From assembly GCF_021347895.1 (NCBI RefSeq), contig NC_067123.1, forward strand, positions 40,168,027 to 40,232,026: a stretch of 64,000 nucleotides of DNA, read 5' to 3'. The stretch's first letter is position 1. Each line of letters opens with the position of its first letter. Source of the stretch: Acanthochromis polyacanthus (Eukaryota; Chordata; Actinopteri; Pomacentridae). The notes under the pieces were generated by a model. The model searched no databases. It saw only the letters and a program-made list of their open reading frames with translations, and was not told where the DNA came from. Made by a program: the position numbers and the translations under genes. Below, piece after piece: positions 9,545-60,964 of this stretch.

Positions 9545-10760
9545 TAATATAAATCATTTCTAGACCATGACAAGTGGTTTAGATCCTAAAGCAAAACACC
9601 AGACTGTTCATTGTCATTTTGTGTCTATTTTTTGTTATATTTTGTCTTGTTTTTGTTGTTTTTTGTCTTATTTTTGTCGTTTATCTCATGTTTTTGTCGT
9701 TCTGTGTTTCCTTTTTGTCTCGCTTGTGTTATTTGTCTTATTTTTGTCACTTTGTGTTTTGCTTTATTAGATGTGTCATTGGTGGGGTTTTTTTGTCTCA
9801 TGTCTTGTTTCGATAGTCTATTTTCTTTTAGTTGTTTTGTTTCTCCCATTTGTCATTTTTAGTCTTGTGTCATTTGTGTAATGTTTTTGTCTAGTTTCTG
9901 TCATTTGTCCATTTTTTGTTTAGTTTAGTTTATTTAAAAGGACAATGTGCAGTAACATTAAAAAGATGCCTGCACCAGATTTAGCACGAAGCTAATTTCC
10001 ATCTGCAGTCCTTTGCACAATAAAAATACATAACACTAACAGGTAATAAAATATTGCAGTCATAAAGATGGCATACAACATAGAATACAATACAAATATT
10101 ACATTAAAAACACATAAAATTCATAATAAAATACACATGAAATTCATAGAGAACAAAAAAAATGCACAAAAAATGCAGAATAGTCAAAATGTAAGATAAT
10201 AATGTGTAACAGCTTTACTATTACTGTCTGCTCCATATTTTAGTGAGTGCAAAACTGATGCTCTAAAAGCCAATTTTTGACCTCACGTGAAAAAGTTGTG
10301 ACTTTTTTGTCAAATTTTTTTGTCTCGTTTCATGTCGTTTGTCTCGTTTTTATTTTGCGTTTTGTTTTTTGTCATTTTGGATTTGAGTTTTGGAATATTC
10401 TGTCTTGTTTTTGTTGATTTTCTTTTGCCTTTTTTGCCCTTTTGATCATAAAGTAAATCCTCCATGGTTCAGTTCCAGGTGACTAAATGTTGTGTTCCTT
10501 TGTAGACACTCTGTGATCTGGAAGTTTAATGTGGAAATGATGAACTGAGGATGAATACTGCTGAAATAGCATTTAGTTTTCTTGATATATTTCAGGTTGT
10601 TCATAAAGTTTAGCTAAAAAAAAAGACAATTGATTAAATGTGAACATTTTCAGAATGTATTTTTGGCACTTAAATAAAAGAAACATTTGGAGTTGTCATT
10701 AGGATCTATAGGTTATCATGCTGTGATTTTACTGGAGATTAGATGGGTTGAATGTGGAAT
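9545..10760 (+). mobile_element. hAT-array family, copy A (5'-truncated)
   Basis: It begins inside the conserved left flank at ATCATTTCTAGACCATGACA, so the left inverted repeat is missing. It then runs through the TTTTGTC array (9605-9912 and 10305-10440) into the conserved right flank (CCAGGTGACTAAATGTTGTG). It fades at GGGTTGAATGTGGAAT without the right terminal repeat. The array is split by a LINE-like insertion, listed separately. There is no coding capacity. Confidence 0.8.
9918..10300 (-). mobile_element. LINE 3' fragment nested in copy A
   Basis: Read on the minus strand, this ends in GCACATTGTCCTTTTAAATA followed by the tandem tail AAACT-AAACT, the short 3' repeat tail of a fish non-LTR retrotransposon. 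It splits the TTTTGTC array in two, so it is a later insertion. Only the 3' end is present, with no reverse transcriptase frame. I cannot name the family. Confidence 0.55.
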
Positions 10761-11139
10761 CGCTGTACAATTCTTTCGAAGGTGGAAAAACCTGTTCTCG
10801 GGGCTTTTAGCTGTGAACAGAGAAACTGCATGAGTACCAATCTCTCCAGTCAGCTGCCAACGCCCTGATGTATCCTTGAGCTATGCAGTAAACCCTCAGC
10901 TTCTCATGTGCAGCTGCTCTTTGTTCATCTGAAGAAGACTGCACACATGTGAACTTGGTCGTTCTGCAAAAGAAGTCTTCCCACACCTGATCGATCACGG
11001 ATGCTGTCGTTATTTTGGCGTCGTTCTGCACCGGTCTGAAGGCTGAAGCAATTACAGTCAGACAATGGGTAGAAGCCGCACACATGTTGCCTTGGTTATA
11101 AGAACACGGCTCACACTGCCTCGTTTCAACGTGAATCTT
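10761..11139. other. Unannotated stretch
   Basis: An open frame runs on the minus strand at 10807-11085 but has no motif I recognise. No splice-site context is convincing. Confidence 0.3.
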
Positions 11140-11148
11140 ATGTCAAGC

Positions 11149-11722
11149 TACCCTAGCCGCGCTAGACAACCCACGGCAAAGAATTTAATTCTCTGCCAGG
11201 GTGGGTCAAGTTACCCTCCATAAGGCTCGAGGCTGGATCCTCCTAAAACTGGCCGGACCAATCACCATGAAGTGTAGAGTCAGAAGGCGGGCGTAACGAA
11301 GTGACGACAGAGGCGCGACGATTCTGACAGAAACAACCGGCGCACAATAAACAGTTATCTTTCGACTCGGCTTTGGCCACAGCCCTTAAAGATTTGAAGC
11401 TAAAATTCAACTTGAAAGAAAAACAAAGGACGGCACTGAAGTGTTTCATTGAGAAGAAAGACGTATTTGGACTTATGCCGACGGGATATGGCAAATCCTT
11501 AATATACCAGTTGGCTCCGCTGGTTGGGAAGCTAATGGGACTTAGCCACAATCCGCCGGTGCTCTAGGAACTACGTCAGCCTATTCGTTGCACTGATTGG
11601 TTGTATACCTACCCAATTGCTGCAGAGTGATTTGAAAGACAACCTTTTAGCCCGCCTCCCTCCCTGTCGAACGGCCCTAGACCCTTGTGCCTTCAGAACA
11701 TGGGTCTAGCGTGGCTAGGCTA
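11149..11722. mobile_element. TIR element with 9-bp duplications carrying a helicase fragment
   Basis: A 574-bp element. Its left end is TACCCTAGCCGCGCTAGAC; the right end reversed is TAGCCTAGCCACGCTAGAC, differing at two positions. The perfect 9-bp direct repeat ATGTCAAGC flanks it at 11140-11148 and 11723-11731. A 9-bp duplication fits Mutator-like transposases better than hAT (8) or Tc1 (2), but the superfamily assignment is inference. Inside, on the plus strand, is a captured gene piece (11373-11567). The ensemble resembles a Pack-MULE. I recall similar repeats being common in fish genomes, so it is probably multicopy. Confidence 0.7.
11373..11567 (+). pseudogene. RecQ-type DNA helicase N-terminal fragment
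   Basis: The frame reads 64 residues to a TAG stop. Residues 34-50, MPTGYGKSLIYQLAPLV, are the ATP-binding Walker A region (motif I) in the form typical of RecQ-family helicases, which unwind DNA 3' to 5'. A lysine-rich stretch ending LKCFIEKKDVF precedes it, as in RecQ proteins just upstream of motif I. Everything after motif I is missing: no DEAH box, no helicase C domain, no RQC or HRDC. The first codon of the frame is TTG, and no in-frame ATG precedes the domain, so it is probably untranslated. It lies wholly within the inverted-repeat element and looks like one captured exon, or the 5' remnant of an autonomous element's own helicase gene. Its family is clear; its origin is not. Confidence 0.75.
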
Positions 11723-11731
11723 ATGTCAAGC

Positions 11732-12775: not shown

Positions 12776-12829
12776 ACAAACACAGAACTTTAACCTGGGG
12801 AGCTGAGCGAGACTAGCTGTTAGCTACAG

Positions 12830-20091: not shown

Positions 20092-20875
20092 CAGGGGTGT
20101 CCACCATGAGGCCCGTGGTCCAAAAGTGGTCCTCCAGAGGGTCCAACATGAGGCCCATGGTCCAAAAGTGGTCCTCCAGAGGGTCCAATCCCTCAAATTG
20201 GAAAAATTACAGAGAAGACATTAACTGCAGATTGTAAATTAGTAAAAGTATAAATTTAAAATCATTTCTAGACCATGACAAGTTGTTTGGATCATGAAGT
20301 AAAATACTAGATTGTTCTTTTGCGTCTCATTTTTGTTGTCTTGTTTTTGTTGTTTTTGTCTAACTTTCGTCGTTCGTCTCATGTTTTTGACGTTTTGTTT
20401 CTTGTTTTTGCCCATTTTTCTGTGGAATCTTTCGTCCCTTTTTTGTTTTGTTTCATGTCGTTTGTCAAACTTTTTGTGTCTTGCTTTTGTCATTTTATGT
20501 CTCATTTATGTATTATTTTGTCTGATTTTTGTCATTTGCACGTTTTTGTCCTTTTGCGTTTCCTTTTTGTCTCACTTGTGTTTTTTGTCATTTTGTATTT
20601 TGCGTTATTCGTTGTTTGAAGCCATTTTGTGTTTTTGTTGTCTCGTTTCTGTCCATTTTTTGTCACTTTGTAACGTTTTTGTCTCCTTTTTGTTTTATTT
20701 CCTGTTATTTGTCTAATTGCTTTGATGTTTTGTGTCTCAGTTTCACAATGTTTTGTCTTGTTTTGTTGTTTTTTGTCGTTTTTTTATCTGACTTTTGTCG
20801 TTTTGCTCGTATAGTAAAAACTGGTCTGGCCCACTTGGCACCAAACTGGGCTAAATGTGGCCCCTGGACTAAAAC
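20092..20875 (+). mobile_element. hAT-array family, copy B
   Basis: It starts with the left terminal repeat CAGGGGTGTCCACCATGAGG. The first 42 bp (GTCCAACATGAGGCCCGTGG and on) are tandemly duplicated. The conserved left flank to ATCATTTCTAGACCATGACA follows, then a TTTTGTC array at about 20300-20810. The right flank is mostly deleted, leaving ACCAAACTGGGCTAAATGTG, and the right terminal repeat is absent. Confidence 0.8.
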
Positions 20876-21760
20876 AATGCTGGTAATCTAATGAGCTTCT
20901 GAATATCAAGTTTGGAAATTTCATTTGCTCCCTGCTCTTAGGTAGCTGCGGTTTATTTGCCCACTCAGTATGTGTAAAATGACATCTACAAAAGCAAATC
21001 CAAACATAACACTGCATTATTTCTCAGCACTGCCTATCTCCATGCTTATAATTCCCCAGATTCATTCTATTCTCACATAGAAGCTGCCCTACAGCCGCCA
21101 GGAGACTCTGCTGGAGCGGGAACATGTGAATTATTTACCTCACACATCAGATAATCACGCTGGATCCTCTCTAATCAGGACTCGGGACACGTCGCCATCG
21201 CACACCGACTCACAAGGTCACTTTTGATCTAAAGGATCTGCAGCTCTGGAACCTCGAAAATAAGCGCAGCAGAGAGCAGGCAGAACTACGGCTTTGATTC
21301 ACATTTTAGCTGCTAAATCAGTGGGATGTGTGTTGTCTGTTGTCTGTCTTGTTCTTCGGGTTCAGTGTCATTTTATTTGCTCCCTGTAGGTTTTCTGGAG
21401 TTTTCCACGTCTTGTCTTTGCCTCTTTGAGTGCTTCGAGATTAAACAAGAATATCATGAAACGCTGTACACACCTGTGGGGAAAGTCCTGTGGAGTGGAG
21501 GAGCTAGAAATAATTGCTGTTCAGTCAGTTGGTAGTTGACTTTGAGGCCTCTCGTTCCTCGTCAGCTCACTAGACATCTGCTGTAAAAGCCTCGACCCGT
21601 CCGATTATTCGATCATGGTCCCACAAAGCTCCTCCTAAACCCCCATCAGCCTCAGGACAGCAGCCGAGATGATGATGAGACAACAACCTGCAGCTTTTTA
21701 TTCTATGTTTATCCTCACCATCAATCCCCCCGTTAGCTCACACCGCCTTTTCCTGTAGAG
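20876..21760. other. Unannotated stretch, possible conserved non-coding DNA
   Basis: The part 21010-21260 is free of simple repeats and contains homeodomain-like TAAT cores (CAGATAATCACG, CTCTAATCAGGA). No gene is recognised. The frame at 21326-21535 has no domain. Confidence 0.3.
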
Positions 21761-22590
21761 CAGGAGCGTCAAACATGAGGCCCACGGTCCAAAACCGGCC
21801 CACCAGATGGTCCAAAACCGGCCCACCAGATGACTTTACAAAGTGTAAAAATTACAGAGAAGACATCAACTGCAGATTGTAAATTAGTAAAACTATAAAT
21901 TTAAAATAATTTCTAGACCATGACAAGTTGTTTGGATCAGAAAGGAAAATACTAGATTGTTCTTTTGTCCTTTTGTGTCTCATTTCTGTAAAATTTTCTC
22001 ATTTTTGGTGTTTTTTTGTCTGGCTTTTATCATTTCTATCACATTTTTGTAATTTTGTTTGATGGTTTGTCATTTTTTTGTCTCGTTTGTATATTTTTGT
22101 AACGTTTTGTCTCATTTTTATCACTTTTGTGTTTTGCTTCGCGTCGTTTGTCTCACTTTTTGTCTTTTTTTTGTCTAACTTCTATCGTTTGTGTCACGTT
22201 TTTGTCGTTTTGCTTCTCGTTTTTATCTTTTTCTCTTTCCTTTTTATCTCGCTTGTGTTTTTGTCTCATTTCTGTCATTTTGTGTTTTGCTTTATTCATT
22301 GTTTTGTGCATCATTTTTGTAATGCTTCATGGTTTTGTCTCTGTCTCGTTTGTGTCCATTTCATTGCAACTTTTTTGTCTAATTTTTTGTCTCTTTTTCA
22401 TTGGTCTCATTTTTTTGTCATTTTGTTTCTCGCTTTTGTCGTTATGTCTCATTTTTTGTAATATTTTGTCTTGTCTTTGTTATTTTTTGTGTTTTTTTTA
22501 AAAGTAAAACACTGTATCGACTAAATGTTGTGTTCCTTTGTAGACACTCTGTAATCTGGAAGCTGTAGTGTGGAAATGATAAACTGAGGT
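21761..22590 (+). mobile_element. hAT-array family, copy C
   Basis: The left end CAGGAGCGTCAAACATGAGG is followed by GTCCAAAACCGGCCCACCAG, present twice in tandem (23-bp unit). That wording matches the sister family at 43197, but the rest (left flank, TTTTGTC array 21957-22500, partial right flank with CTAAATGTTGTGTTCCTTTG) matches the main family. The right terminal repeat is missing. It may be a recombinant of two subfamilies. Confidence 0.75.
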
Positions 22591-23740
22591 TCAGTCAAAC
22601 ATCCAAAACAGCTGGTAGGAAGTATAACGAGTTAACAATTCACTGATATCACAAAGAGGCAGTTATAGAAGGGTGCATGGGTCACGTCGGCTTTGGGGAA
22701 AGGGGAGAAAAAATAACCCTGGATTGCCATTTTCCAAGAGCAAGAGGCAGAAAAGTCTCCGGTGGAATGTAATCATCAATTGTACACAGCTGATTGATTA
22801 CGCAAGACCGCTTTCATCTCCGCCTCGTGAACAAAGGGTGTTTCTGAAGTGGGCAAAATGAGCAAATTAGAAGGGATTTAGGTAGAACTAAAGAGATCCT
22901 CTCAAGCAAATGGTGCTTATCATCCTATTAGCCTGTTGGACCGTGGGCAGATAGGGGGCATCTGAAGAAACTGCTCTGGGCAAAAAAAAAAAAAAAAAAG
23001 CTGCAGAAGAAGAGGTCGGCTGAAATTAAATCACAGCCAGCAGCATTTACAGGAAGTCATTTTTCCAGAAGGCTCCACGGCTGCAGCGCCGTTGTTTCTC
23101 CGGCGGGTTGATGATCCGCGCTGCGTGGGAGCCGTGAACTTGAACATACGTGTAGCGCCGTCGCATTCCGTTTCTCTGTGTCGTAAATGTCAAAGTGATC
23201 CTTCATCTGCTCGACACAAATGCCAAAAGCCAACCGTGTGGCGATGAGAGGAACTTTTTATTCTAATGTGAGTTATTGTTTGCTATCAGTCTGTGGGCTG
23301 CTTATCCGGCTCATCGCAGCATATATTATGAAGATGCTAATGTCCTCCATAAAAACCACTTCAACCACTCGTAATGGAAACCCGTCAAATGGTTGAGCAG
23401 CGTTTGACACCTTCCACTAATGTCCCATTTCAGCTTGAATATGAAATAAAACCTCACAGCTACTGAGACTGAGCTGGATTTAAATAACTGCTGTTGGAAC
23501 TGGAACTAGAACCAAGTCGAAGCATGATAAACTGACAAATGAAAAAATGGAAAAAGTGGATTTCATCTCAAAAACTCTATTAATATGTTCATCTATTATA
23601 GATAGTAGCTTTGTTTGCTCTCTTTAATTTGCAGTTTTATTGGTTCCCTGTGACTTGAATGCACAATCACTTCCTAAAACAGCTGCTATATCCAAGCACA
23701 GCCTCATTTATACGAAAGAAACATCATTTTAACAAGAAGA
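22591..23740. other. Unannotated stretch, possible conserved non-coding DNA
   Basis: A poly(A) run lies at 22982-22999. The segments 22650-22960 and 23000-23400 are complex, non-repetitive text without a clear open frame, the pattern expected of conserved regulatory DNA. This rests on texture only. Confidence 0.3.
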
Positions 23741-24244
23741 AGGGTGTCCAACATGAGGCCCGTGGTCCAAAAGTGGTCCTCCAGAGGGTCCAATCCGGCC
23801 CTCAAAGTGGAAAAATTACAGAGAAGACATTAACTGCAGATTGTAAATCAGTAAAACTATAAATTTAAAATCATTTCTAGACCATGACAAGTTGTTTGGA
23901 TCAGAAAGTAAAATATTAGATTGTTCTTTTGTCACTTTGTGTCTCATTTTTGTAATATTTTGTCAGTTTTTGTTGTTTTTTTGGTCTGACTTTCATCATT
24001 TTTTTCTTATTTTTGTCGTTTTGTGTTTCCTTTTCGTCTCACTTGTGTTGTCAGTCTACTTTTTTGTCGTTTTTGTTTCTCCCTTTTGTCATTTTTGTTC
24101 TTGTCTCATTTGTATAATTTTTGTCTCGTTTTTATTGTTTGTCCATTTTTTTGTCGCTGTGTCTCTTTTTTGTTTTGCTTCGTGTCGTTTGTCTCATTTT
24201 TTTCATTTTGTGGAACCTGAACTAAAATGAATTTGACTCTCCTG
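23741..24244 (+). mobile_element. hAT-array family, copy D
   Basis: A short copy of about 504 bp. It has the left end AGGGTGTCCAACATGAGGCC, the conserved left flank, a TTTTGTC array at 23925-24215, then a direct jump to the right terminus GGAACCTGAACTAAAATGAA and TTTGACTCTCCTG. The conserved right flank is deleted. Confidence 0.8.
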
Positions 24245-26033: not shown

Positions 26034-27360
26034 GTTCATGTTTGGCTAGTTTCCCTGTGATTGTAGGGCTCATGTTTGACTAGTTTCCCTGTGGTTGTAG
26101 TGTTCATGTTTAGCTAGTTTCCCTGTGATTGTAGGGTTCATGTTTGGATAGTTTCCCTGTGATTGTAGGGTTCATGTTTGGATAGTTTCCCTGTGATTGT
26201 AGGGTTCATGTTTGGCTAGTTTCCCTGTGATTGTAGGGTTCATGTTTTGGCTAGTTTCCCTGTGGTTGTAGTGTTCATGTTTAGCTAGTTTCCCTGTGGT
26301 TGTAAGTTTCATGTTTTGGCTAGTTTCCCTGTGATTGTAGGGTTCATGTTTGGCTAGTTTCCCTGTGACTGTAGGGCTCATGTTTGGCTAGTTTCCCTGT
26401 GATTGTAGGGCTCATGTTTGGCTAGTGTCCCTGTGATTGTAGGGTTGATGTTTGGCTAGTTTCCCTGTGATTGTAGGGTTCATGTTTAGCTAGTTTCCCT
26501 ATGATTGTAGTGTTCATGTTTGGCTAGTTTCGCTGTGATTGCAGTGTTCATGCTTAGCTAGTTTCCCTGTGGTTGTGTGGTTCATGTCTGGATAGTTTCT
26601 CTGTGATTGTAGTGTTCGTGTTTAGCTAGTTTCCCTGTGGTTGCAGGGTTCATGTTTGGCTAGTTTCCCTGTGATTGTAGGGCTCATGTTTGGCTAGTTT
26701 CCCTGTGATTGTAGGGTTCATGTTTGGATAGTTTCCCTGTGATTGTAGGGTTCATGTTTGGCTAGTTTCCCTGTGATTGTAGGGTTCATGTTTGGCTAGT
26801 TTCCCTGTGATTGTAGGGTTCATGTTTGGCTAGTTTCCCTGTGATTGTAGGGCTCATGTTTGGCTAGTTTCCCTGTGATTGTAGGGTTCATGTTTGGATA
26901 GTTTCCCTGTGATTGTAGGGTTCATGTTTGGCTAGTTTCCCTGTGATTGTAGGGCTCATGTTTGGCTAGTTTCCCTGTGATTGTAGGGTTCATGTTTGGA
27001 TAGTTTCCCTGTGATTGTAGGGTTCATGTTTGGATAGTTTCCCTGTGATTGTAGGGTTCATGTTTGGCTAGTTTCCCTGTGATTGTAGGGTTCATGTTTG
27101 GCTAGTTTCCCTGTGATTGTAGGGTTCATGTTTGGCTAGTTTCCCTGTGATTGTAGGGCTCATGTTTGGCTAGTTTCCCTGTGATTGTAGGGTTCATGTT
27201 TGGATAGTTTCCCTGTGATTGTAGGGTTCATGTTTGGCTAGTTTCCCTGTGATTGTAGGGCTCATGTTTGGCTAGTTTCCCTGTGATTGTAGGGTTCATG
27301 TTTGGATAGTTTCCCTGTGATTGTAGGGTTCTTGTTTGGCTAGTTTCCCTGTGATTGTAG
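26034..27360 (+). repeat. 34-bp minisatellite, about 39 units
   Basis: A head-to-tail array whose unit begins GTTTGGCTAGTTTCCCTGTG. Units differ mainly at two positions: GGCTA or GGATA, and GGGTTCAT or GGGCTCAT. The left third is more diverged. The right half shows a higher-order repeat: an ordered run of eight variants starting at 26756 recurs, after one extra unit, at 27062, exactly 306 bp (nine units) later. Since 34 is not a multiple of three, no protein repeat is encoded. There are no spacers, so it is not a CRISPR array. Confidence 0.95.
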
Positions 27361-29262: not shown

Positions 29263-29318
29263 TCACCGCACTGCAGTCACTGCAAGCTCCAGAGGCGGCA
29301 GGAGGCGGGGATCTAAGC

Positions 29319-30273
29319 CAGGGCTGTCCAACTCATCTTAGCTCATGGACAACCTGAAATTTCTGAAGAAAAGTAAGTTCAGTTTCAGCAACGTCATGCT
29401 TCAGTTTATCATTTCCACGTTACAACTTCCAGATCACAGAGTGTCGACAAAGGAACACAACATTTAGTCACAGCTATTTGGAACTCAATGATGTAGTATT
29501 TTACTTTATGATAAAAATGACAAAAATCAGACAAAAAAAAAACCACAACAAAAAAAGACCAAATATTGCAAAAATCAGATGCAAAATGACAAAGATGAGA
29601 CAAAAAAAATGAGAAATGAGACAAACAGCATGAAACAAAATTTTAAAAAGTGACAAAAAATTAGACAAAAACATTACAAAGATACAAAAAATAAAGACAA
29701 ATGAGACAAAAATGGCAAAGAAAGAAACAAAAACACAAAAAAAATTAGCCAAACAACACAAATGAGACAAAAAAAATACAAAATGACAAAAACATGAGAC
29801 AAAGTCAGACAAAATACAACAAAAACAAGACAAAATATCACAAAAATCAGACGGAAAATGACAAAAAAGACAAGACAACAAAAAATGCGACAAACGGCAC
29901 AAAACAAAACAAAAAAAAGGCAAAAAATTGACAAAGCGACCAAAAAAATGGACAAACGAGATAAAAAAAATGACAAAAGTGACAAACTTTTGTTTGTCAC
30001 TTTTGTCTCGTTTTTTTGTCTCGTTTTTTTGTCTCATCAACAAAAACAAGACAAAATACTCCAAAAATGAAACAAAACAGCAAAAGAACAATCTATTATT
30101 TTCCTTTCTGATCCAAACAACTTGTCATGGTCTAGAAATGATTTTAAATTTATAGTTTTACTAATTTACAATCTGCAGTTAATGTCTTCTCTGTAATTTT
30201 TACACTTTGAGGGCCGGATCGGACCCTCTGGAGGACCACTTTTGGACCACGGGCCTCATGTTGGACAGCCCTG
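29319..30273 (-). mobile_element. hAT-array family, copy E, full length
   Basis: A 955-bp minus-strand copy with both termini: CAGGGCTGTCCAACTCATCT on the left and TGTTGGACAGCCCTG on the right. Flanking 8-bp repeats are ATCTAAGC (29311-29318) and ATCTAACC (30274-30281), 7 of 8 identical. The array (GACAAAA orientation) spans 29513-30095 and contains a short inverted segment at about 29992-30038. Long minus-strand frames in it are low-complexity artefacts. Confidence 0.85.
29972..30007. repeat. Perfect hairpin inside copy E
   Basis: GACAAAAGTGACAAAC, a TTTT loop, and the exact reverse complement GTTTGTCACTTTTGTC give a 16-bp perfect stem. It marks the point where the array flips orientation. 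Confidence 0.85.
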
Positions 30274-30281
30274 ATCTAACC

Positions 30282-31985: not shown

Positions 31986-32008
31986 AATGAATGAATGAAT
32001 GAATGAAT
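31986..32008 (+). repeat. (GAAT)n microsatellite
   Basis: Five to six GAAT units immediately abutting the left end of the inverted-repeat element at 32009. It may have grown from the target-site sequence. Confidence 0.8.
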
Positions 32009-32659
32009 GGGTCAATATTGAGGGACTTTAAGTAGTTTTTATTAAAAGTTTAAAAAAAGTTTATGTTCATTATGATGATGTCTTTTCAAATTCTATAATT
32101 ATTTATTATGGAAACAATCCCTTATTAATAAAAAATGACTGGATATCACTAAAATATCAACTAAATAATGTCTGAATTTAACACCAACCACCTTCTAATG
32201 AGCTAAACAATAATAAAATGAGCTGATTCACAAAGAGTTTGGATTGTGTTCTTTTATTAAGGTGAAATAATCATGACAGGTATTTCTTTTTGGCAGTATA
32301 TCAGATTTTATATGAAGAATAACAAATTAAATCCCTTTCCACTAAGTTCCCCGTTCCAAAAACACCTCTCCAGGAAGTGTGTTAATTCCAGATCACATGA
32401 CCTGCTCCACATGATGTCATTTCCTCCTGAAGAAAAGACTGGAAGACTCCAAGGCTTTCTGACTTATTTAATATAAAATAGTCAACAGGTTTACTATAAT
32501 AACTTTACATTTTACTCAGTTGTATATATAATATCTAGAAGAATCTTTCTCTAAAATACCATGTGGTGTTTGGTTATAGGCGGCCATGTTGGTTTTAGGC
32601 CTGAAAACAGCAAAAATGTGGACTATGATACAAAAAGTCCTGCAGTTATATACTGACCC
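32009..32659 (-). mobile_element. 650-bp inverted-repeat family, copy 1
   Basis: The ends GGGTCAATATTGAGGGACTT and, reversed, GGGTCAGTATATAACTGCAG share the first GGGTCA and a GGACTTT block. The interior, including CACATGATGTCATTTCCTCC and GGCGGCCATGTTGGTTTTAG, is the reverse complement of the element at 37346-38001. It is a non-autonomous DNA transposon by structure. I do not recognise the superfamily. Confidence 0.7.
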
Positions 32660-33075: not shown

Positions 33076-34345
33076 CCAGCCTCCTCTCCACCAGCCCTTT
33101 ATCATCTCCCTCCTTTCTTTACCTTCTGTTGTTTTTATTTCCTTCACTTTTTCTCTTCCTTTCCTCTATGTCCGGAGTGTCAAACTCATCTGAGTTCAGG
33201 TTCCACATTCAGCCCAATTAGATTTTAAGTGAACTGGAGCAGTAAAACCACAGCACAATAACCCATAAATAACCACAACTCCAACTTTTTCCTTTGTTTT
33301 AGTGCAAAAATGTTCATTCTGAAAATGCTCACTTTTAAGTTATTATCTGTTTACATCATGAACAACCTGAAACTTGTTTAGAAAAATAAATTCAATTTCA
33401 TCCACATTCATCCTCAGTTTATCATTTCCTCATTACAAGTTCCAGATCACAGAGTGTCTACAAAGAAACACAACATTTAGTCACCTGGAACTGAACCATG
33501 GAGGATTTACTTTATGATCAAAACCACAAGTCAGACAAAAACAACAAAAATAATACAAAATATTCCAAAAATAAGACACAAAATGACACAAATGAGACAA
33601 ATGTCACGAAACAAAACAAAAAAGGCACAAAAAATTTCTTTAAAAAGTCGAAAAGCCACAAAAACAAGACAAAAATGACACAAATGAGAAAAAAAGTAAC
33701 AAAAAAAGAAACAAAACTACAAAAAGTGGACAAACAACACAAGAAAGACAAAAAACACAAAATGACGAATAAAGCAAAACACAGAATGATAAAAAATTGA
33801 CAAGAAACAAACGAGACAAAAAGGAAACACAAAAAGACAAAAATGAGAAACATATGACAAAAATATGACAAAAAAAGACAAAATGTTACAAAACTGAGAC
33901 AAAATGACAAAATGAACAATCCAGTATTTTACTTTCTGATCCAAACAACTTGTCATGGTCTAGAAATTATTCTAAATTTATAGTTTTACTAATTTATAAT
34001 CTGCAGTTAATGTCTTCTCTGGAATTTTTACATTTTGAGGGCCGGATTGGACCCTCTGGAGGACCACTTTTGGACCACGGGCCTCATGTTGGACAGCCCT
34101 GCTCTATGTGGACCCTCCATCTCTCCTCTTGACTGAATTCCTTTTCTTCATCTCTCTTCTCCCTCATCTCATCACCTTCCTTCTTCCATCTTTTTCCACT
34201 CCTCTGCTGTCCTTCTCATTTCATTCTAGCCTTTATATTCCCCCTTTCACCTCCTGTTTCCTTCACTCCTTCCTCCGTTTTCATCCTCTGATTCCTGCTC
34301 GTTGCCTCCTCTTTCCTCCCTACCATCATCCATCTCTGTTGATCC
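33076..34345 (+). repeat. Polypyrimidine tract split by hAT copy F
   Basis: The plus strand is mostly C and T at 33076-33171 and again at 34110-34345; copy F sits between the two parts. It is the left half of a pyrimidine-to-purine switch that continues at 34630. Confidence 0.65.
33172..34101 (-). mobile_element. hAT-array family, copy F, full length
   Basis: A 930-bp minus-strand copy flanked by the perfect 8-bp duplication CTCTATGT (33164-33171 and 34102-34109). Termini are CCGGAGTGTCAAACTCATCT and TGTTGGACAGCCCTG. The right flank is the longest intact version here, with GTTCATTCTGAAAATGCTCA and CCAGATCACAGAGTGTCTAC. The array spans 33530-33920. Together with copy E this fixes the element ends and the hAT-type duplication. 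Confidence 0.9.
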
Positions 34346-37341: not shown

Positions 37342-37345
37342 ATTA

Positions 37346-38001: not shown

Positions 38002-38005
38002 ATTA

Positions 38006-38722: not shown

Positions 38723-39384
38723 TAGGGCAGTCCAACATGAGGCCCGTGGTCCAAAAGTGGTCCTCCAGAGGGCCCAATCCGGCCCTCAAAGTGGAAAAAT
38801 TACAGAGAAGACATTAACTGCAGATTGTAAATTAGTAAAACTATAAATTTAAAATCATTTCTAGACCATGACAAGTTGTTTGGATCAGAAAGTAAAATAC
38901 TGGATTGTTCTTTTGTCATTTTGTGTCTCATTTTCTAATATTTTGTCTTGTTTTTGTTGGGTTTTTTCTTTTTTTTGTCTGACTTTTGTCATTTTGATCA
39001 CAAAATAAAATCCTCTGATTCAGTTCCAGGTGACTAAATGTTGTGTTCCTTTGTAGACACTCTGTGATCTGGAAGTTGTAATGTGGAAATGATAAACTGA
39101 GGATGAATGCTGATGAAACTGAATTTCTTTTTCTTCAGAAATTTCAGGTTGTTCATAATGTTTTGTAAAAAGAAAATTTCTTAAGTATTATAATAATAAT
39201 ACATTGTATTTATATGCACCTTTAATTCTTTAAATGTGAACTTTTTTGCACTATAACAAAGGAACCATCAGGAGTCGTGGTTATTTATCGGTCGTTATGC
39301 TGTGGTTTTACTGGTTTTACTGGTCCGGTCCACTGCGGATCAAACTGGGCTGAATGTGGAGCTAAGATGAGTTTGACTCGTCTG
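38723..39384 (+). mobile_element. hAT-array family, copy G (minimal array)
   Basis: The left end TAGGGCAGTCCAACATGAGG and the conserved left flank lead into only about 90 bp of array (38910-38998). A complete right flank and the end GATGAGTTTGACTCGTCTG follow. It is the best view of the element with little expansion. A small insertion at 39186-39232 (AATAATAATACATTGTATTT and on) interrupts the right flank. Confidence 0.8.
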
Positions 39385-43405: not shown

Positions 43406-43699
43406 CAGGGGTGTCCAACATGCAGCAAAAACACGAAACAAATGACAAAGTCAGTCAAAAAACAACAAAAGAAGACAAAATATTACAAAAATGAGACACA
43501 AAATTACAAATGAACAATCTAGTGTTTTACTTTCTGATCCAAACAACTTGTCATGGTCTAGAAATGATTTTAAATTTATAGTTTTACTAATTTACAATCT
43601 GCAGTTAATGTCTTCTCTGTAATTTTTACACTTTGAGGACCGGATTGGACCCTCTGGAGGACCACTTTTGGACCACGGGCCTCATGTTGGACACCCCTG
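43406..43699 (-). mobile_element. hAT-array family, copy H (two left ends)
   Basis: Only 294 bp. Both ends carry the left-type terminus: CAGGGGTGTCCAACATG at the start and its reverse complement at the end. Other copies pair this with CAGGGGTGTCAAACTCAT. The array is only about 80 bp and the whole right flank is absent. Confidence 0.75.
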
Positions 43700-44291: not shown

Positions 44292-45545
44292 CAGGGGTGT
44301 CCAACATGAGGCCCGTGGGCCAAAAGTGGTCCTCCAGAGGGTCCAATCCGGCCCTCAAAGTGGAAAAACTCCAGAGAAGACATTAACTGCAGATTGTAAA
44401 TTAGTAAAACTATAAATTTAAAATCATTTCTAGACCATGACAAGTCGTTTGGATCAGAAAGTAAAATACTAGACTGTTCATTTTGTGTCTCATTTTTATT
44501 ATATTTTGTCCTTTTTTGTCTGACTTTTGTCATTTTGTTTCGCATTTTTTGTTTCATTTGTGTAATTTTTTGTCTTGTCTATTTTTTAATAACCTTTTCA
44601 AATTTTTTGTCTCTTATTTTGTTTGGTCTTTTTTCTCATTTTTAGTTATTTTATGCTCCCTTTTGTCAGTTTGTCTTGTTCTTGTCATTTTATGTCTCAT
44701 TTTTAGAATATTTTGTCTTGTTTTTGTTGTTTTTTCTCTTTTTTTCTGACTTTTGTCGTTTGTATCATGTTTTTGTCATTTGTGGAATATTTTGTCTTGT
44801 TCGTAGCATTTATTCATTTTTTCTAACTCTTCTTCCAACTTTTCTGTCTCTTTTTTGTTTTGTTTGCTGTCATTTGTCTCATTTTGTTGTTTTGTGTCTC
44901 GTTTTTGTAATATTTTATCTTGTTTTTGTTGTTTTTTGTCTTTTTTGTCTCACTTTTGTCGCTCGTCTCATGTTTTTGTCATTTTGTTTCTGGTTTTTGT
45001 CATTTTGTGTTTCCTTATTGTCTCGTTTGTGTTTTGTCTTATTTTTTTGTCATTTTGTGTTTTGCTGTATTCATTGTTTTGTGTGTAGTTTTGTGTATTT
45101 TGTCTCACTTGTGTTTGTCTATTTTTTCTGTTGTTTTTTCTCATTTTTATCACTTTACGTCTCATTTCTGTAACGTTTTGTCTTGTTTTTGTTGAGGGTT
45201 TCTGTCTTTTTTTGTGGTTTTGATCATAAAGTAAATCTTCTCTGCTTCAGTTCCAGGTGACTAAATGTTGTGTGTCTTTGCAGACACTCTGTGATCTGGA
45301 AGTTGTAATGAGGAAATGACAAACTGAGGATGAATTGCTGATGAAATAGAACTCATCTTTTTAAATTAATTTCAGGGTTTTGTGGAAAGATAATTCCTTA
45401 AATGTTAACTTTTTTTGCACTAGAACAAAAGAACCGTTAGGAGTTGTGGCTATTTATAGGTTATTATGCCGTGGTTTTACTGGTTTTACTGGTTTTACTG
45501 GTCCGGTCCACTGGAGATCAAACTGGACTGAATAGAACCTGACAT
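44292..45545 (+). mobile_element. hAT-array family, copy I
   Basis: The left terminus is CAGGGGTGTCCAACATGAGG. A 750-bp TTTTGTC array (44475-45225) follows, then the right flank with three tandem GGTTTTACTG decamers, fading at CAAACTGGACTGAATAGAAC. The right terminal repeat is lost. Confidence 0.8.
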
Positions 45546-45830
45546 TTCTGCTGTAGAAGAAAGAGGAGCTTTTAGTGGAAGGGGGTGAAGAAGACCTGCT
45601 AGCCAGGGAGGAAACCGTCTCCACATGCTTCGTGCATCACACAGGAAGAAAACAGGAGCGTTTCCAGCTAATGTCACACTGACCATCAGTCTGTAACTCC
45701 ATTATAGAGCGAGCTGCACTCAGAGCTGCTGTACAGCAACGGGAAGGGATGAACACGGTGTTTGCACTACATGACTGGAAACTCAATTCACACCGAGCTC
45801 ACAGGAAAACTGTTGAATCAGTCACACACA

Positions 45831-46061: not shown

Positions 46062-46062
46062 A
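46001..46062 (+). repeat. Compound (CA)n(GA)n microsatellite
   Basis: CA units with two CATA interruptions pass directly into GA units. Confidence 0.9.
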
Positions 46063-47250: not shown

Positions 47251-47427
47251 CATCCCTCTCTCTCTCTCTCTCTCCTCCTCATCACTTCCTCACGACACGT
47301 GTTGAATGCTAAACTAAGTTGCTCCGATGTGGGATGCTTTTATTCTATTAAAAGCTTTACTTGACTATTACTTTTCTTCTTTCTTCACCTTCTAGTCTCT
47401 CCTATTCCTCCTCATCCCTCCTAATGC

Positions 47428-48731
47428 AGGAGAGTCCAACTCATCTTAGTCCAGGTTCCACATTCAGTCCAGTCTGATCTCCAGTGACCAGTAAAACCAC
47501 AGCATAATAACCTTTAATAAATAACCACAACTCCACGCGATTCCACTGTTTTAGTGAAAAAAGTACACTCTGAAAATGTTCACATGAAAGGATTTTTTTT
47601 CACAAAATATCACGAACAACCTGAAATTTCTTAAGAAAAATTAGTTGAATTTCAGCAGCAGTTTATCATCTGCAAAAAATATATTACAAAAACGAGACAC
47701 GAAAAGACAAAAAAAATGAGACAGACGACAGAAATTAGACAAACAAATGACACAAACGAGATAAAAAATGACAGATGCAAGAAACAAAACAAAAAAAGGT
47801 AGGCAAACAACACAAGACAAAAACACAAAATGACACAAAACATGCACAAAAAATGAATGAAGCAAAATATAAAATGTCAAAAATAAGACAAAAAACCCAA
47901 AAGTGAGTCAAAAAGGTAACACAAAATGACACAAAAGACAAAACCGTAAGACAAATGAAAAAAAATCAGGAAAAAACAAAACATTACAAAAATGAGACAC
48001 AAAATGGCAAAAATGAGAGGAACGACACGAAACGACAAAAAAGTGACAAAGAAAAGAGAGAAAAAGTTATGAAGCCAAAAAAAGGACAAATGAGACAAAA
48101 AAATGACAAAAGCGCAAAACAAAGCGTTAAAAACATGAGACAAGCGATAAAAGTCAGACAAAAAAGACAAAAAAAAGACAACAAAAATGACACAAATGGC
48201 AGAAGCAGGAAACAAATTAACAAAAAATGAGACAAAAGACAGAAATGAGACAAATAAATTACACAAATGACACAAACAACTTTGGTCTGACAAAAAAGAC
48301 AAAAAACAAGATAAAATATTACAAAAATGAGAGAAAAAAATAAAAGCGAGACACAAAACTGCAAAAATGAGACAAAAAGACAAAAACATTACACAAACAA
48401 CAAAAAATACCAAAAGCAAGACAAAATATTGCAAAAGTGAGACAAAATGACAAAAATGAGAAACGATACAACAAAAACATGAGACAATGACAAAAAAAAA
48501 AACAAGACAAAATATTACAAAAATGAGACACCAAATGACAAAATAACAATCTAGTATTTTACTTTCTGATCCAAACAACTTGTCATGGTCTAGAAACGAT
48601 TTTAAATTTACAGTTTTACGAATTTCCAATCTGCAGTTAATGTCTTCTCTGTAATTTTTACCCTTTGAGGGCCGGATTGGACCCTCTGGAGGACCACTTT
48701 TGGACCACGGGCCTCATGTTGGACACCCCTG
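47428..48731 (-). mobile_element. hAT-array family, copy J (longest array)
   Basis: A 1304-bp minus-strand copy with termini CAGGAGAGTCCAACTCATCT and TGTTGGACACCCCTG. The array is about 870 bp (47680-48545), the largest here. Flanking octamers TCCTAATG and TACTAAAC agree at only 5 of 8, so the duplication is decayed or absent. A 250-codon minus-strand frame is an artefact of the array. Confidence 0.8.
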
Positions 48732-49526: not shown

Positions 49527-50310
49527 GGATCAATATATAACTGCAGGACTTTTTGTATCATAGTCGACATTTTTGCTGTTTTCAGGCCTAAAACCAACAT
49601 GGCCGCCTATAACCAAACACCACATGGCATTTTAGAGAAAGATTCTTCTAAATATTATATATACAATTGAAAAAAATTTGAAAGTTATTTATAAAGATAT
49701 TGTACAGTAGTACATCTGTTGACAAAATGACTCAATGACACACAAAATTATCAGAAAAAGACGAAACGACCACAAACAGACTGATAATGACCGAAAATGA
49801 CCACAGAAAAACACAACATGACTCAATGAGACGAATAATTATCATATAAAGATACAAAATGACGACGAAAAGTTGCAAAATGACCACAGAGACACACAAA
49901 ATGATCTCAAAAAGAGCTAAAATGCCCACAAAACAGTCTGAAAATGACCAAAACAGAAACAACATGAGCACAAATACGTATAAAGCAACCACAAAGACAC
50001 ATGACAAAAAAATGACACAAAATGACCACAGAAAAACACAACATGACTCAATGAGACGAATAATTATCACATAAAGATACAAAATGACGAGTGACACACA
50101 AAAGAATGACAAAAATTTGCAAAACACACTGAAAACAGCCACAAAAAACACATCATGACCACAAAAATGCAGAAAATTAGCACAAAAAGACCTAAAATGC
50201 CTGCATTTTAATGATATCCAGTCATTTTTATTGATAAGTGATTGTTTCCATAATAAATAATGATGGAATTTGTAAAGACATGATCATAATGAACGTAAAA
50301 AGCATTAGTT
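49527..50310 (+). mobile_element. 650-bp inverted-repeat family, copy 3, with array
   Basis: The left third (GGATCAATATATAACTGCAG to about 49730) and a right piece (GATATCCAGTCATTTTTATT, 50213-50305) match copies 1 and 2. The middle third is replaced by a tandem AAAATGACCACA-type array at 49735-50205. The right terminus is missing. Confidence 0.7.
49735..50205 (+). repeat. AAAATGACCACA minisatellite
   Basis: Degenerate tandem words of the form ACACAAAATGACCACAAA. A block of about 65 bp at 49801 recurs nearly unchanged at 50026, 225 bp later, showing block duplication. Confidence 0.75.
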
Positions 50311-51428
50311 TCTTGCCTTTTAATTTAAAAAGTAGCTGATACGGTAATCACTTCAAGTATCACAAAACAGAAGAACTCAAGTGAAAGTATCTCAAACCTC
50401 CTTCCACCACCTCCTCGGCCTAAAACCAGCCTGCCTCCCTCCTACTGCTGCACAACTGGTCTCAGCATCCCATCGGACATATGAAGGTCAACACATGTCT
50501 CGACTTCTCAGTTAAAACTGGGCCAACTCTGACTGGACTGTCTAATTTGTGTTAGATTTTCAGGCTGAAGTTTGTTCAGACACCTTTCTTGTAACATAAT
50601 CTAAGTGTGAAACTGCAGGTGAAACCATTCCTCTGACTAACCTAGACGGCTATGAAACGAGCCAAAGTTGAGGCATCCTTCAACAGCCTCAGACACCAGT
50701 TTCACATCAGAGCTACCACAAACCACTCTATCATTTAAAAGCAGACATGCTTTTAGGTCAAAGTACATCTAGATGTCGGGGTAAAAACTCACTTGTTCAA
50801 AAAATACTTGTTCTTTCAGTAGTATGCTTTCATATGTGGTCAAAAAGCAGCCCAGCCACCCAAAAGTCACATTTTTCTACAAGTAATCTGTATTCTCAGT
50901 TACATTTCAGCTGGTTTGTGACACATCATGAGTAAATTTCTAGTCAACAAATATTTTTAGGTCTTTCCTGTTGCTCCTTTTCAGCCAAGACATTCATATA
51001 TTAGATGGGATGAAGCTCGTCACCTTGGTAACCCAAAAATGAACAAGTTTCAAACAAGTTGTATTTTAAGCCAAACCGTGATGTATTCTTAAACCTAATC
51101 AAGTAAGTCTGGTGCTTAAAACAATGCAAACTGCAAATGAAAACAACACTAAAGTCAAAAACTAATAGTTTTTAGGGAAACAATTTTTGAGACAAAGTTG
51201 TCAAAAGTGCTTCAAACCTAAATGTTCCACCAACATTTCCTCATCAGCTACATAAAGAACAGTTCACACACAGATGTCCAGGCAGCCGCTCACTCGCGAA
51301 CATTTTCAAGTTATAGAAACACAGCTTGCTAACTTGGAAAAGCCCCGTTCCAGAAGTAAAAACAACGATCCTTCAAGTTGAATCTCAATTTGGGGAGGGG
51401 GAAGAAGTCAGGTTGCACAGTGGCAGTG
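50311..51428. other. Unannotated stretch
   Basis: No gene or transposon termini recognised. Confidence 0.3.
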
Positions 51429-57072: not shown

Positions 57073-58248
57073 CAGGGGTGTCCAACATGAGGCCCGTGGT
57101 CCAAAAGTGGTCCTCCAGAGGGTCCAACATGAGGCCCGTGGTCCAAAAGCGGTCCTCCAGAGGGTCCAATTCGGTCCTCACAGTGTAAAAATTACAGAGA
57201 AGACATTAACTGCAGATTGTAAATTAGTAAAACTATAAATTTAAAATCATTTCTAGACCATGACAAGTTGTTTTGATCATAAAGTAAAATAGTAGATTGT
57301 TTATTTGTGCTTTTGTGTCTCTTTTTTGTAATATTTTGTCTTGTTTTTGTTGACTGACTTTTTGTCGGTTTGTAAATGGTAAATGGTCTGTATTTATAGA
57401 GCGCTTTTACTATACCTGCAAGGTACCCAAAGCGCTTTACATGATACATCACATTCACACATTCACACACTGATGGTGGAAGCTGCCATGCAAGGCGCTA
57501 ACCACGACCCCATCAGGAGCAATTAGGGGTTAGGTGTCTTGCTCAGGGACACCTCGAGCACGACGGGGCGAGGATCGAACCGGCAACCCTTCGGTTGCAA
57601 GACGGCCACTCTACCCACTGAGCTATGCCGCCGGTTTGTCTCATGTTTTTGTCATTTTGTCTTTCCTTTTTGACTCGCTTGTGTTTTCTTGTCTTATTGT
57701 TATCATTTTGTTTCTCGCTTTTGTCGTTTTCTGTCTCATTCTCGAATATTTTGTCTTGTTTTTGTTGTTTCTGCCTTTGACTTTTGTCATTTGTCTCATG
57801 TTTGTTGTTTCGTATTTCCTTTTTGTCTCGTTTGTGTCTGTCTTATTTGTCACTTTGTGCTGTGCTTATTCGTTGTTTTGTGTGTCGTTTTTGTCCTTTA
57901 GTGTTTTTTGTCTCACTTGTGTTGTCCATTCTTTAGTTCATTTGAAACAGTTTTGTCTAATTTTTGGACTCTTTTTTGTTTTGTGGCATTTGACTCATTT
58001 TTTTGTCATTTTGTTTCTCGTTTTTGTAATATTTTGTCTTGTTTTTGCCGTTTCTTGGTGTTTGCTGTCGTTGTGATCATAAAATAAAAAAGCTGTGACT
58101 AAATGTTGTGTTCCTTTGTAGAATTAATTTTATTTATCAGTCATTATGCTGTGGTTTTACTGGTTTTACTGGTTTTACTGGTCCAGTCCACTGGAGATCA
58201 AACTGGGCTGAATGTGGAACCTGGACTAAGATGAGTTTGACACCTCTG
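57073..58248 (+). mobile_element. hAT-array family, copy K, with nested SINE
   Basis: Both termini are present: CAGGGGTGTCCAACATGAGG and GATGAGTTTGACACCTCTG. The first 42 bp are tandemly duplicated, as in copy B. The array is split by a SINE (57374-57631) and resumes to about 58075. The right flank has three GGTTTTACTG decamers but lacks part of the middle seen in F. Flanking octamers do not match well. Confidence 0.85.
57374..57631 (-). mobile_element. tRNA-derived SINE inserted in copy K
   Basis: A 258-bp minus-strand SINE with perfect 8-bp duplications CGGTTTGT at 57366-57373 and 57632-57639. The head has A box TAGCTCAGTGG (57615-57625) and B box GGTTCGATCCT (57571-57582) in a tRNA-like arrangement. 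The body has GGTGTCCCTGAGCAAGACAC and the tail GCGCTCTATAAATACAGACC with ATTTACC repeats, a common fish SINE type. It looks young, with intact promoter boxes, and is transcribable by RNA polymerase III in principle. Confidence 0.88.
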
Positions 58249-58256
58249 GTTTAGAG

Positions 58257-59812
58257 TGTGTTTTGAGGATTAAAGTGAAGCTCTGTGGAACAGTGGAATC
58301 AGATAATACCAGGCTCTGAATGCAAAGATAATATTTGTTAGTGAGATCATTTCATTACTGGCTTTGGGTGTTTTCATGGGATTCATGGACAGTAAGAAAA
58401 ACTCAAATTTATATTCAGAGATTCTCACTAAAGCCTAGTTTGTGTCTTCTTGAGGCCATGTTGAATTAATCTTCCTACTTCTAAAGACTTGCAAGTAAAA
58501 CCTGCCTTGTATGAGCGAGAAATGATCCATTTCTCTGACTTTAACTGACACTTTGCTGTGTTTCTTGGCTCGGTTCGAAAACATCAGCATGAAAAGGGGA
58601 ACAAGATGGAAAACCAACCCCACCAACAGACTGATCAACAGCTTGCCCAACTTCAAGTCCTAAGATGATTAAAGTTAATGGAGATGGCTTTAAGTGTGTC
58701 ATCTCTGGACATGGAAGCCATGATGAGTATGATGAACCCAAGACTGAAGAAAATGACGAAGTTTGAGAAGTTAGAAGGTGTTAAAAATGCCACATAGACT
58801 GAAATCATCCCAAAGTTTGACTCACAAACTACAAACGCTTGATCGACTTGCTAAACCAGCGTGTTATTTTTATTTTTTTTTGTTTATCATGCAAAAAGAT
58901 CCCCCAGTAACTGCAGCCTGAAACAAAAGAGCATCGGATGACAGAAGACAATTTTTCAGAAACCATAGAGGTAAACGAATGAAGGCCAGCCCATGATTCC
59001 TTTGAATTCAATCACACTGACCCTGATCTTGTAGCCTAATCTTAAAAAACTTTTCAGAATTCATGCTTTCTTTCAATGCCTTGGCAGAACTACCTTTATT
59101 TACATGCAAACAGGTGTCTTGGACTTTTTTTTTTTTATCATGGCAGTATTACTGTATGGAAGCTGCATTTTACAAAGACAAACGGTTTTCCTTATCTACG
59201 ATTTGCAGCCTGTTGCTTTGAATCCCCAGTGCTTTATATCTTACATATGGTTCAGAATCAAATCATGTCACTAGCTTTCTGCATTTTATGTTATCAGAAT
59301 GGAAACAACCGTTTGGTTTACAGAGAGGGCAAACAGACAGGAAAGCATCAGAGAGCAGCTCAACAGGAATGCAGAGCGTGAACTGCTGCTCGTGGAGAAT
59401 TTTGATGTCGAATGAGTCACAGAATATTTGATTTTCTAATGTTTAAATAAAAAGCGACAGCCTCAGTGTGGCATAGACACACACACTAACTGCTTCAGAG
59501 CTTCCCTAATGGCAAAAACTTCCAGACGATACTTTTAATTGGCTCTGAAAAACTAATTCCACACTGTGTAATTCTGTACTGGACAAAATTCTTCTCATAA
59601 AAGTGTCATTTTTAATTTTTCTTGAAACTGTATCTTTTCTGTGGATGCATATTTTAGTGTTGTATTGAAAAAGGTTAAAAATATTAGAAAAGTCTTTCAT
59701 TATGAAGCAATATTTACAACAACAGCATCACAACTTCTATAGAACTGAATCAAAGGCTGAAAGGGAAAGTCGGTAGATCAGTTTAAATGAGCGAGCACAG
59801 CGTGGTCATGGA
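58257..59812. other. Unannotated stretch
   Basis: Poly(T) runs at 58870-58880 and 59126-59137. No gene recognised. Segment 59400-59600 is complex non-repetitive text. Confidence 0.3.
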
Positions 59813-60964
59813 ACCACAACTCCAAACGTTTCCTTTGTTTTAGTGCAAAAAACTTCATTCTGAACTTGTTCATGTTTAAGGAATGATCTATTTTCCAAAC
59901 ATTACGAATAACATGAAATTTCTGAAGAAAAATAAGTTCAATTCCATCAACATTCATCCTCAGTTTATCATTTCCTCATTACAACTTCCAGATCACAGAG
60001 TGTCTACAAAGGAACACAACATTTAGTCACCTGGAGCTGAACCATGGAGGATTTTAATTAATGATCAAACGACCAAAGTCTGACAAAAAAAAAGACAAAA
60101 TATTTCAAAAATGAGACACGAAATGACAAAAATGAGACAAATGACACAAAACAAAACAAAAAAAGAGACAAAATATTAGACAAAAAAGATACAAAGCGAC
60201 AAAAACATGGACAGGCAACAAAAATGAGATTAAAAAAATCACACAAAATGACAAAAATAAGACAAAACCACAATCAAGACAAAAAGGAAACAAAATGACA
60301 AAAACGGTAAAAGTCAAAAAATACCAAAAAAACAACAAAAACAAGACGGAATACTCCAAACACGAGACACAAAATGACAAAAAGAAAAAATTTAAAAGAG
60401 ACAAAAAGTTACAAAGAGACAAAATAAAAACAAACGACAAAAACAAAAATGACAAAAGCGAGACTCAAAACTACTAAAAAGTAGACAAACAAGGCGAGAC
60501 AACAAAAAAACAAAATGACACACAAAACAACAAATAAAACAAAACATAAAATGACAAAAAGAAGACGAAAAACACAATCGTGTCAGAAAGGAAACGCAAA
60601 CGACAAAAACATGATGACAAACAATAAAAGTCAAACAAAAAATGACAAATATACTACAAAATATTACAAAAATGAGACACAAAATGACAAAAACATGACG
60701 ACAAACAAAAGTCAGACAAAAAAGCAAGAACAATACAAAAAAATAAAGAAATGAGACAAAATGACCAAAGAAAAATGAGCAATCTAGTATTTTACTTTCT
60801 GATCCAAACAACTTGTCATGGTCTAGAAATGATTTTAAATTTATAGTTTTACTAATTTACAATCTGCAGTTAATGTCTTCTCTGTGATTTTTACACTTTG
60901 AGGGCCGGATTGGACCCTCTGGAGGACCACTTTTGGACCACGGACCTCATGTTGGACACCCCTG
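59813..60964 (-). mobile_element. hAT-array family, copy L
   Basis: A minus-strand copy truncated on its right-terminus side (starts at CCACAACTCCAAACGTTTCC). It has a full right flank, a 710-bp array (60070-60780), and an intact left terminus ending TGTTGGACACCCCTG. Confidence 0.82.

What the first reader, a model, noticed from the sequence alone, without database searches (positions are those of the whole stretch)
9545..60964. A hAT-type MITE family that carries its own expandable TTTTGTC array
Twelve copies in 64 kb share two conserved flanks around a T/G/C-only array of words such as TTTTGTCTCATTTTTGTC. Array length varies from about 80 bp (G, H) to about 870 bp (J), while the flanks stay recognisable. 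Copies E and F have 8-bp duplications (7/8 and 8/8), which set the element borders and the hAT assignment. The element appears to seed long, strand-asymmetric minisatellites wherever it lands. Such arrays could affect replication or transcription, and their length should be polymorphic.
Basis: partly seen in the sequence, partly recalled or inferred. Interest (0 to 1): 0.75.

Follow-up and report, generated by a model that had tools for sequence, protein, structure and literature searches.

The report
Fish-like transposon carrying a minisatellite
A short jumping gene of a fish-like genome carries, at one fixed internal spot, an ordered block of T-rich tandem repeats that it most likely picked up from a minisatellite already scattered through the genome; such elements are known from frogs and clams, so this is a well-documented new case rather than a new kind of thing.

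Summary
In detail: twelve copies (A-L) of a hAT-type MITE with an internal T-rich array. Copies sampled from the 957-Mb genome confirm hAT borders: of 22 with both termini, 11 have 7-8/8 octamer duplications, against 0.4% of mismatched control pairs. The array is an ordered ~311-bp higher-order unit: true word order beats 30 permutations in 48 of 48 arrays of 250 bp or more (14 of them made the unit). Array length is unrelated to flank divergence. Array-less copies exist: 19 of 23 examined junction hits, 12 with a diagnostic base seen in 1 of 40 array-bearing copies. A ~30-bp direct repeat borders the array. Of 97 similar arrays sampled on one contig and in the window, 37 show no MITE flank; 28 of the 31 long ones fit a plain 21-bp minisatellite better; some stand against a second element family. 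So 'the MITE seeds minisatellites' is weaker than 'a MITE captured a dispersed minisatellite and amplified it'; a flank tree does not settle direction. Closest precedent: miDNA4 of Xenopus. New member of a known kind.

The parts
9551..10735 (+). copy A: truncated left flank (9551-9616), array 9612-9919 and 10305-10414 split by unrelated insert (~9925-10300), right flank 10440-10735
20092..20895 (+). copy B: 42-bp duplicated left end, left flank to 20322, array 20331-20801, degenerate right end (end approximate)
21761..22591 (+). copy C: left flank, array 21963-22490, right flank truncated
23739..24243 (+). copy D: left flank, array 23927-24211, only terminal part of right flank
29319..30273 (-). 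copy E: complete, array 29517-30077 (with an inverted segment near 29993-30033)
29311..29318 (-). target site duplication of E, GCTTAGAT (partner GGTTAGAT 30274-30281; 7 of 8)
33172..34101 (-). copy F: complete, array 33534-33912
33164..33171 (-). target site duplication of F, ACATAGAG (partner 34102-34109; 8 of 8)
38723..39384 (+). copy G: shortest called array 38911-38992
43406..43699 (-). copy H: left flank and short array (~43420-43515, below the array caller's cut), right flank not found, left-type terminus at both ends
44292..45550 (+). copy I: array 44481-45215
47427..48731 (-). copy J: longest array in the window, 47686-48543
57073..58248 (+). copy K: duplicated 42-bp left end; array interrupted by unrelated insert ~57372-57633; array 57635-58071
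59812..60964 (-). copy L: array 60082-60761, right flank truncated
49581..50330 (-). second element family (TE2, not the MITE; limits approximate) with its own T-rich array 49721-50187

Best explanation
A ~500-bp non-autonomous hAT element (ends CAGGGGTGTC..., 8-bp duplications) acquired, once and at one internal site, a stretch of a T-rich 21-bp minisatellite (unit about GTCATTTTGTGTCTC(A/G)TTTTT) already dispersed in the genome. The gain left a ~30-bp duplication of element sequence on either side of the array, as expected of templated gap or break repair. Inside the element the array evolved into a ~311-bp higher-order unit, and the composite was spread by a hAT transposase supplied elsewhere. 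Length differences (about 0.3 to 3.9 units) come from gain and loss of whole or part units by slippage or unequal exchange, not from growth with age. SHOWN: hAT borders, the ordered unit, the bordering repeat, array-less copies, arrays without MITE flanks. INFERRED: direction (capture), single event, the repair mechanism, the transposase, the way units are gained and lost.
For: hAT: 11 of 22 copies with both termini have 7-8/8 octamer match, control pairs 0.4%. Order: 48 of 48 flanked arrays >=250 bp score above all 30 word-permuted units (14 of the 48 had made the unit, 34 had not). Array-less elements: L057 (502 bp, duplication 8/8), L056 (492 bp, 7/8) and L058 (right terminus not recognisable) seen whole; 29 exact junction hits genome-wide, 0 control; of 20 more of these examined by 28 upstream bases 16 read as left flank, so 19 of 23 examined, 6 not examined. 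Array-less copies have T at a diagnostic site in 12 of 19 (28-mers read by eye), array-bearing copies in 1 of 40 scored (38 A, 1 G; 6 of 46 not scorable; p 6e-7). The flank consensus at both array edges shares 27 of 29 bases; a 33-base probe fits with <=12 mismatches at 44 of 60 left and 27 of 60 right MITE array edges, and never under 13 inside arrays or at edges of flankless ones. Arrays without MITE flanks: 37 of 97, 28 of 31 long ones fit the plain 21-bp unit better; TE2 is joined to such arrays at several positions while two window copies have none.
Against: The flank tree (26 array-bearing, 5 array-less) does not place array-less copies basally; they are scattered, as repeated loss would give. 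L059 has a right-type repeat at its junction and reads as a secondary loss; L060's junction is diverged (7 mismatches). 7 of 19 array-less copies have the array-bearing base A. At 33 of 60 MITE arrays the right bordering repeat is not recognisable at <=12 mismatches. No donor locus was identified. The TE2 junctions may be deletions rather than insertions.
Confidence: 0.64

Rival explanations
1. One reading: the array was born and grew inside the MITE; free arrays are old MITE copies whose flanks decayed or were lost while the array was kept uniform by exchange.
For: A few arrays without detected flanks carry the MITE words in MITE-like order (for example L031_1880, L039_4644; L039_4644 lies at a region edge); 3 of 31 long flankless arrays fit the 311-bp unit better; some MITE arrays have regular 21-bp stretches (L012_4126, L038_3766).
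Against: 37 of 97 arrays show no flank relic with profile models at E<=1e-4, the same 37 as with BLAST; 28 of 31 long flankless arrays fit the simple 21-bp unit rather than the MITE unit; no relation of length to divergence.
Confidence: 0.2
2. The array-bearing form is ancestral and array-less copies are losses by recombination between the ~30-bp repeats.
For: Scattered position of five array-less copies in the tree; L059 junction of right type; 7 of 19 array-less copies have the array-bearing base.
Against: Junctions of L056-L058 are of left type, though the query was right type; 12 of 19 array-less copies have the diagnostic T against 1 of 40 array-bearing; 5 of 19 array-less copies lie near contig ends. 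One search covered only left-type junctions, so it cannot count right-type losses.
Confidence: 0.2
3. Convergence: low-complexity T-rich arrays only look alike and the shared unit is chance.
For: Base composition alone produces many weak matches.
Against: 20-mer TTTTTGTCATTTTGTGTCTC (<=1 mismatch) in 29 of 60 MITE and 29 of 37 other arrays; a 45-mer of the 21-bp unit found 36 times, reversed control 0.
Confidence: 0.03

Closest known systems
miDNA4 MITE of Xenopus tropicalis (Scalvenzi and Pollet), as described in passages of the reviews PMC12628747 and PMC9659126; original not read
   Same: [quoted passage not shown] variable copy number; direct repeats beside the array; arrays proposed to end up without MITE ends
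   Different: Tc1/mariner, not hAT; direct repeats of 5 or more bp, here ~30 bp; a ~311-bp higher-order unit is seen here
Xmix MITE with Xstir repeats, Xenopus (Hikosaka and Kawahara 2004; seen only as cited in PMC9659126 and PMC12628747)
   Same: tandem repeats riding on a MITE, found also as separate arrays
   Different: there the repeats are thought to derive from the MITE's own internal sequence
Tandem repeat-containing MITEs of Donax trunculus (Satovic and Plohl 2013; title seen in a reference list, paper not held)
   Same: MITE with internal tandem repeats, by its title
   Different: clam; details not seen
Tetris / TIR-220 of Drosophila virilis (PMC4079207, passages seen)
   Same: transposon-borne repeats also found as longer arrays
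   Different: foldback element with repeats in its inverted repeats, expanded in heterochromatin

Membership tests
hAT superfamily | 8-bp target site duplications | tested here: met
   11 of 22 copies >=7/8, control 0.4%; 38 of 60 flanked arrays lacked two recognisable termini and were not counted
hAT superfamily | short terminal inverted repeats of the form CAG...CTG | tested here: met
   CAGGGGTGTC(A/C)AAC and its complement at the two ends; the CAG...CTG form as a hAT mark is recalled
hAT superfamily | preferred target octamer (nTnnnnAn or nnnTAnnn; recalled) | tested here: met
   left octamers n=40: pos 2 T 23, 4 T 29, 5 A 33, 7 A 30
hAT superfamily | related autonomous copy with hAT transposase and the same ends | not tested
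   PF05699 searches of the own genome did not complete
MITE | short, non-coding, high copy number | tested here: inconclusive
   array-less form ~500 bp; 623 exact 31-mers, 4115 first-look candidates of which 40 were scored; stop-free stretches up to 278 codons in copy J were neither placed nor compared with protein families
tandem-repeat-bearing MITE (miDNA4 type) | variable internal array bounded by direct repeats | tested here: met
   right repeat recognisable in 27 of 60 only
tandem-repeat-bearing MITE (miDNA4 type) | same repeat also outside the MITE | tested here: met
   37 of 97 arrays without flanks; two pairs among them are the same or duplicated sequence
tandem-repeat-bearing MITE (miDNA4 type) | repeat was captured, not home-grown | tested here: inconclusive
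   array-less copies with own diagnostic base, but scattered in the tree

The most novel reading that the evidence does not exclude
The 21-bp minisatellite itself is the mobile thing: it is repeatedly copied as templated filler into breaks, so that it turns up in introns, at several positions of one element family (TE2), and at one site of a hAT MITE, which then became its vehicle for hundreds or thousands of further copies.
Probability: 0.25. Interest if true: 0.65.

Novelty: new member of a known kind. Interest (0 to 1): 0.45.

Why it matters
It is an unusually complete series for the question of how transposons and satellite repeats give rise to each other: array-less element, array-bearing element with a bordering duplication, and free arrays, all in one genome. 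With sister species the direction of transfer could be settled site by site. The copies are also many, length-variable loci that could serve as markers.

Tried and rejected
Flank decay as the cause of flankless arrays: profile models found no relics beyond BLAST. Growth with age: no correlation. Clean quantisation of length in 311-bp steps: only loosely visible, unit counts spread 0.29-3.87. Bordering repeats at free arrays: 6 of 33 score >=24 against 4.4% of about 495 control pairs, best L027, L014, L012_8408; suggestive only. In the same test MITE copies showed no excess (15 of 58 against 28% of control pairs), as control pairs share the family repeat. Array position effect: end-clustering is marked in the young subfamily and in the plain 21-bp arrays (14 of 18), but the older A-type subfamily is near expectation (24 of 94 within 5 Mb of an end, expected 0.21), so the array does not by itself explain it; the 28 of 31 for array-bearing rows comes from the best-scoring of 4115 candidates. 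No control element family could be mapped (TE2 searches unanswered). First TSD script failed and was mended. Eight literature searches listed no paper that I recognised as describing this repeat or a hAT MITE carrying it; I judged by listings and a few passages.
Full report
WHERE. The window is C11:40168027-40232026 of an unnamed 957-Mb genome in 81 contigs, 1.5 Mb from the end of that 41.7-Mb contig. It looks like a teleost (inference from recalled features; not tested).

OBSERVATION. Twelve copies of one left flank (~190 bp) are found, on both strands; A keeps only 67 bp of it. The right flank (~350 bp) is found in ten by BLAST, as a terminal remnant in D and not in H. Between them lies a T-rich array, 82 to 858 bp as called (H not called). 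E and F have 8-bp duplications of 7/8 and 8/8.

GENOME SAMPLE. I fetched 47 stretches around array hits on contig C1 besides eight loci. With the window this is 359 kb and 97 arrays. BLAST finds MITE flanks at 60 (35 both sides, 15 left only, 10 right only) and none at 37; profile searches leave the same 37 without a flank. Among the 60, the two halves of copy A count twice. Among the 37, L009_9453 and L034_453 are one array fetched twice, L019 and L020 are near-identical duplicates, several lie at region edges (L031_10, L039_4644, L041_85), and a few (L027, L032_3858) are poor representatives.

hAT BORDERS. Of 60 flanked arrays, 22 have both termini recognisable; octamer matches are 8/8 in four, 7/8 in seven, 6/8 in one, 5/8 in four and fewer in six. 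Left octamers paired with right octamers of other copies reach 7 or 8 in 0.4%. Target preference is nTnTA(G/A)An.

THE ARRAY IS ORDERED. Lag analysis gives a 21-bp period, weak in MITE arrays (excess 0.064), strong in flankless ones (0.188). Ten word types tend to recur in one cyclic order in MITE arrays, a-c-d-e-c-f-g-h-i-j-f-k, with many gaps and departures. Fourteen arrays of 283-489 bp align from end to end at 77% mean identity over ungapped columns. Wrap-around alignment to the 311-bp unit beats all 30 permuted-word units in 48 of 48 MITE arrays of 250 bp or more (34 of them not used for the unit); the 21-bp unit does better in 7 of these 48 and in 28 of 31 flankless ones; the flankless ones, too, mostly score above the permuted units (28 of 31). 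Unit counts run from 0.29 to 3.87 in the 40 arrays with both flanks by profile search. Array length is unrelated to left-flank (n 46) or right-flank (n 41) divergence. Hence the array moves with the element and changes by units or parts of them; it does not visibly grow after landing.

ARRAY-LESS FORM. In the flank consensus the end of the left flank and the start of the right flank share 27 of 29 bases. A 33-base probe of this fits with at most 12 mismatches at 44 of 60 left and 27 of 60 right edges of MITE arrays, and never with fewer than 13 inside arrays or at the edges of flankless ones. Joining the flanks with one copy of it and searching the genome gave 4115 first-look candidates, 40 scored; the five best run across the junction. 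Three (L056-L058) have exact or one-mismatch left-type junctions; L056 and L057 have duplications of 7/8 and 8/8; L058's right end is not recognisable. L059 has a right-type junction and L060 a diverged one. The exact left-type junction occurs 29 times, control 0. Upstream 28-mers of 20 further hits: 16 left flank, 4 array or other (L067, L070, L082, L086). With L056-L058, 19 of 23 examined are array-less; six of the 29 were not examined. At one site they have T in 12 of 19, read by eye; array-bearing copies have T in 1, A in 38, G in 1, six not scorable. Against this, a tree of 26 array-bearing and 5 array-less copies scatters the latter; support values were not examined and branches are long. 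I read the dispersed T-type copies as the older array-less stock, some A-type ones possibly as losses.

ARRAYS ELSEWHERE. Flankless arrays lie in unrelated sequence, several in a region that reads like introns of a CREB3L-type gene (L012; name recalled). Some adjoin a second element family, TE2, which has two copies without an array in the window (about 32000-32660 and 37340-37930); in W49, L009, L010, L012, L014, L033 and L034 arrays stand against it at several different internal positions. A dispersed minisatellite that enters elements explains this better than one that comes from the MITE.

DISTRIBUTION. The young left-flank 31-mer (623 hits, first 100 listed) is sharply clustered: on C1 the 24 hits fill 9 of 70 one-Mb bins (simulated minimum 15), on C2 68 hits lie in 0.81-3.20 Mb and none from 3.2 to 28.5 Mb. 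Plain 21-bp 45-mers (36 hits, complete list, which I grouped into 18 loci) fall within 5 Mb of a contig end at 14 loci; the other four are two on C1 near 40 Mb, one on C2 at 29.4 Mb and one on C22 at 25.2 Mb, 5.35 Mb from its end. The older A-type subfamily (194 hits, 100 listed, 94 on contigs of known length) is near expectation (24 of 94; expected 0.21). Confirmed array-less copies: 5 of 19. So clustering belongs to the young subfamily, perhaps local hopping; inner patches might be old chromosome ends joined by fusion (speculation).

LITERATURE. miDNA4 is the nearest precedent: passages of the review PMC12628747 describe a MITE thought to have captured a tandem repeat, flanked by short direct repeats; PMC9659126 passages list Xmix/Xstir and others; PMC4079207 passages describe Tetris. 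The finding is thus a new member of a known kind, in the hAT superfamily, with a fuller set of intermediates than I saw described in those passages.

Noticed in passing
C1 and C2 of G000: The young MITE subfamily is confined, on the part listed, to a few megabase-size patches: 68 hits in 2.4 Mb of C2 and none in the next 25 Mb.
   Followed up: partly
window 49581-50330, ~32000-32660, ~37340-37930: Second non-autonomous element family (TE2) with and without a T-rich array; array junctions at different internal positions in other loci.
   Followed up: partly
window 26034-27361: 39-copy, 34-bp tandem array GTTCATGTTTGGCTAGTTTCCCTGTGATTGTAGG, 92% matches.
   Followed up: no
C9:1.69-1.73 Mb and C11:22.52-22.57 Mb: MITE left-flank hits spaced about 11.5-11.9 kb apart (one gap of 24.7 kb), suggesting a tandemly duplicated segment holding a MITE.
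   Followed up: no
C2:29353326-29355935: Free 21-bp array whose 45-mer hits are spaced 271, 272, 386, 271, 272, 386 bp and then irregularly: a higher-order unit of its own of ~929 bp.
   Followed up: no
window 43406-43699: Copy H has the left-type terminus at both ends and no right flank: a rearranged copy.
   Followed up: no
window 57372-57633 and ~9925-10300: Unrelated sequences inserted inside the arrays of copies K and A.
   Followed up: no
window 43200 onward: A related hAT-like end CAGGGGTGTCAAACATACGGCC just beside copy H, perhaps a relative or parent family.
   Followed up: no
L014, array 2629-3513: A free array also stands between two diverged copies of ~48 bp (GTGTTAATT...), as if gained with a duplication.
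   Followed up: no
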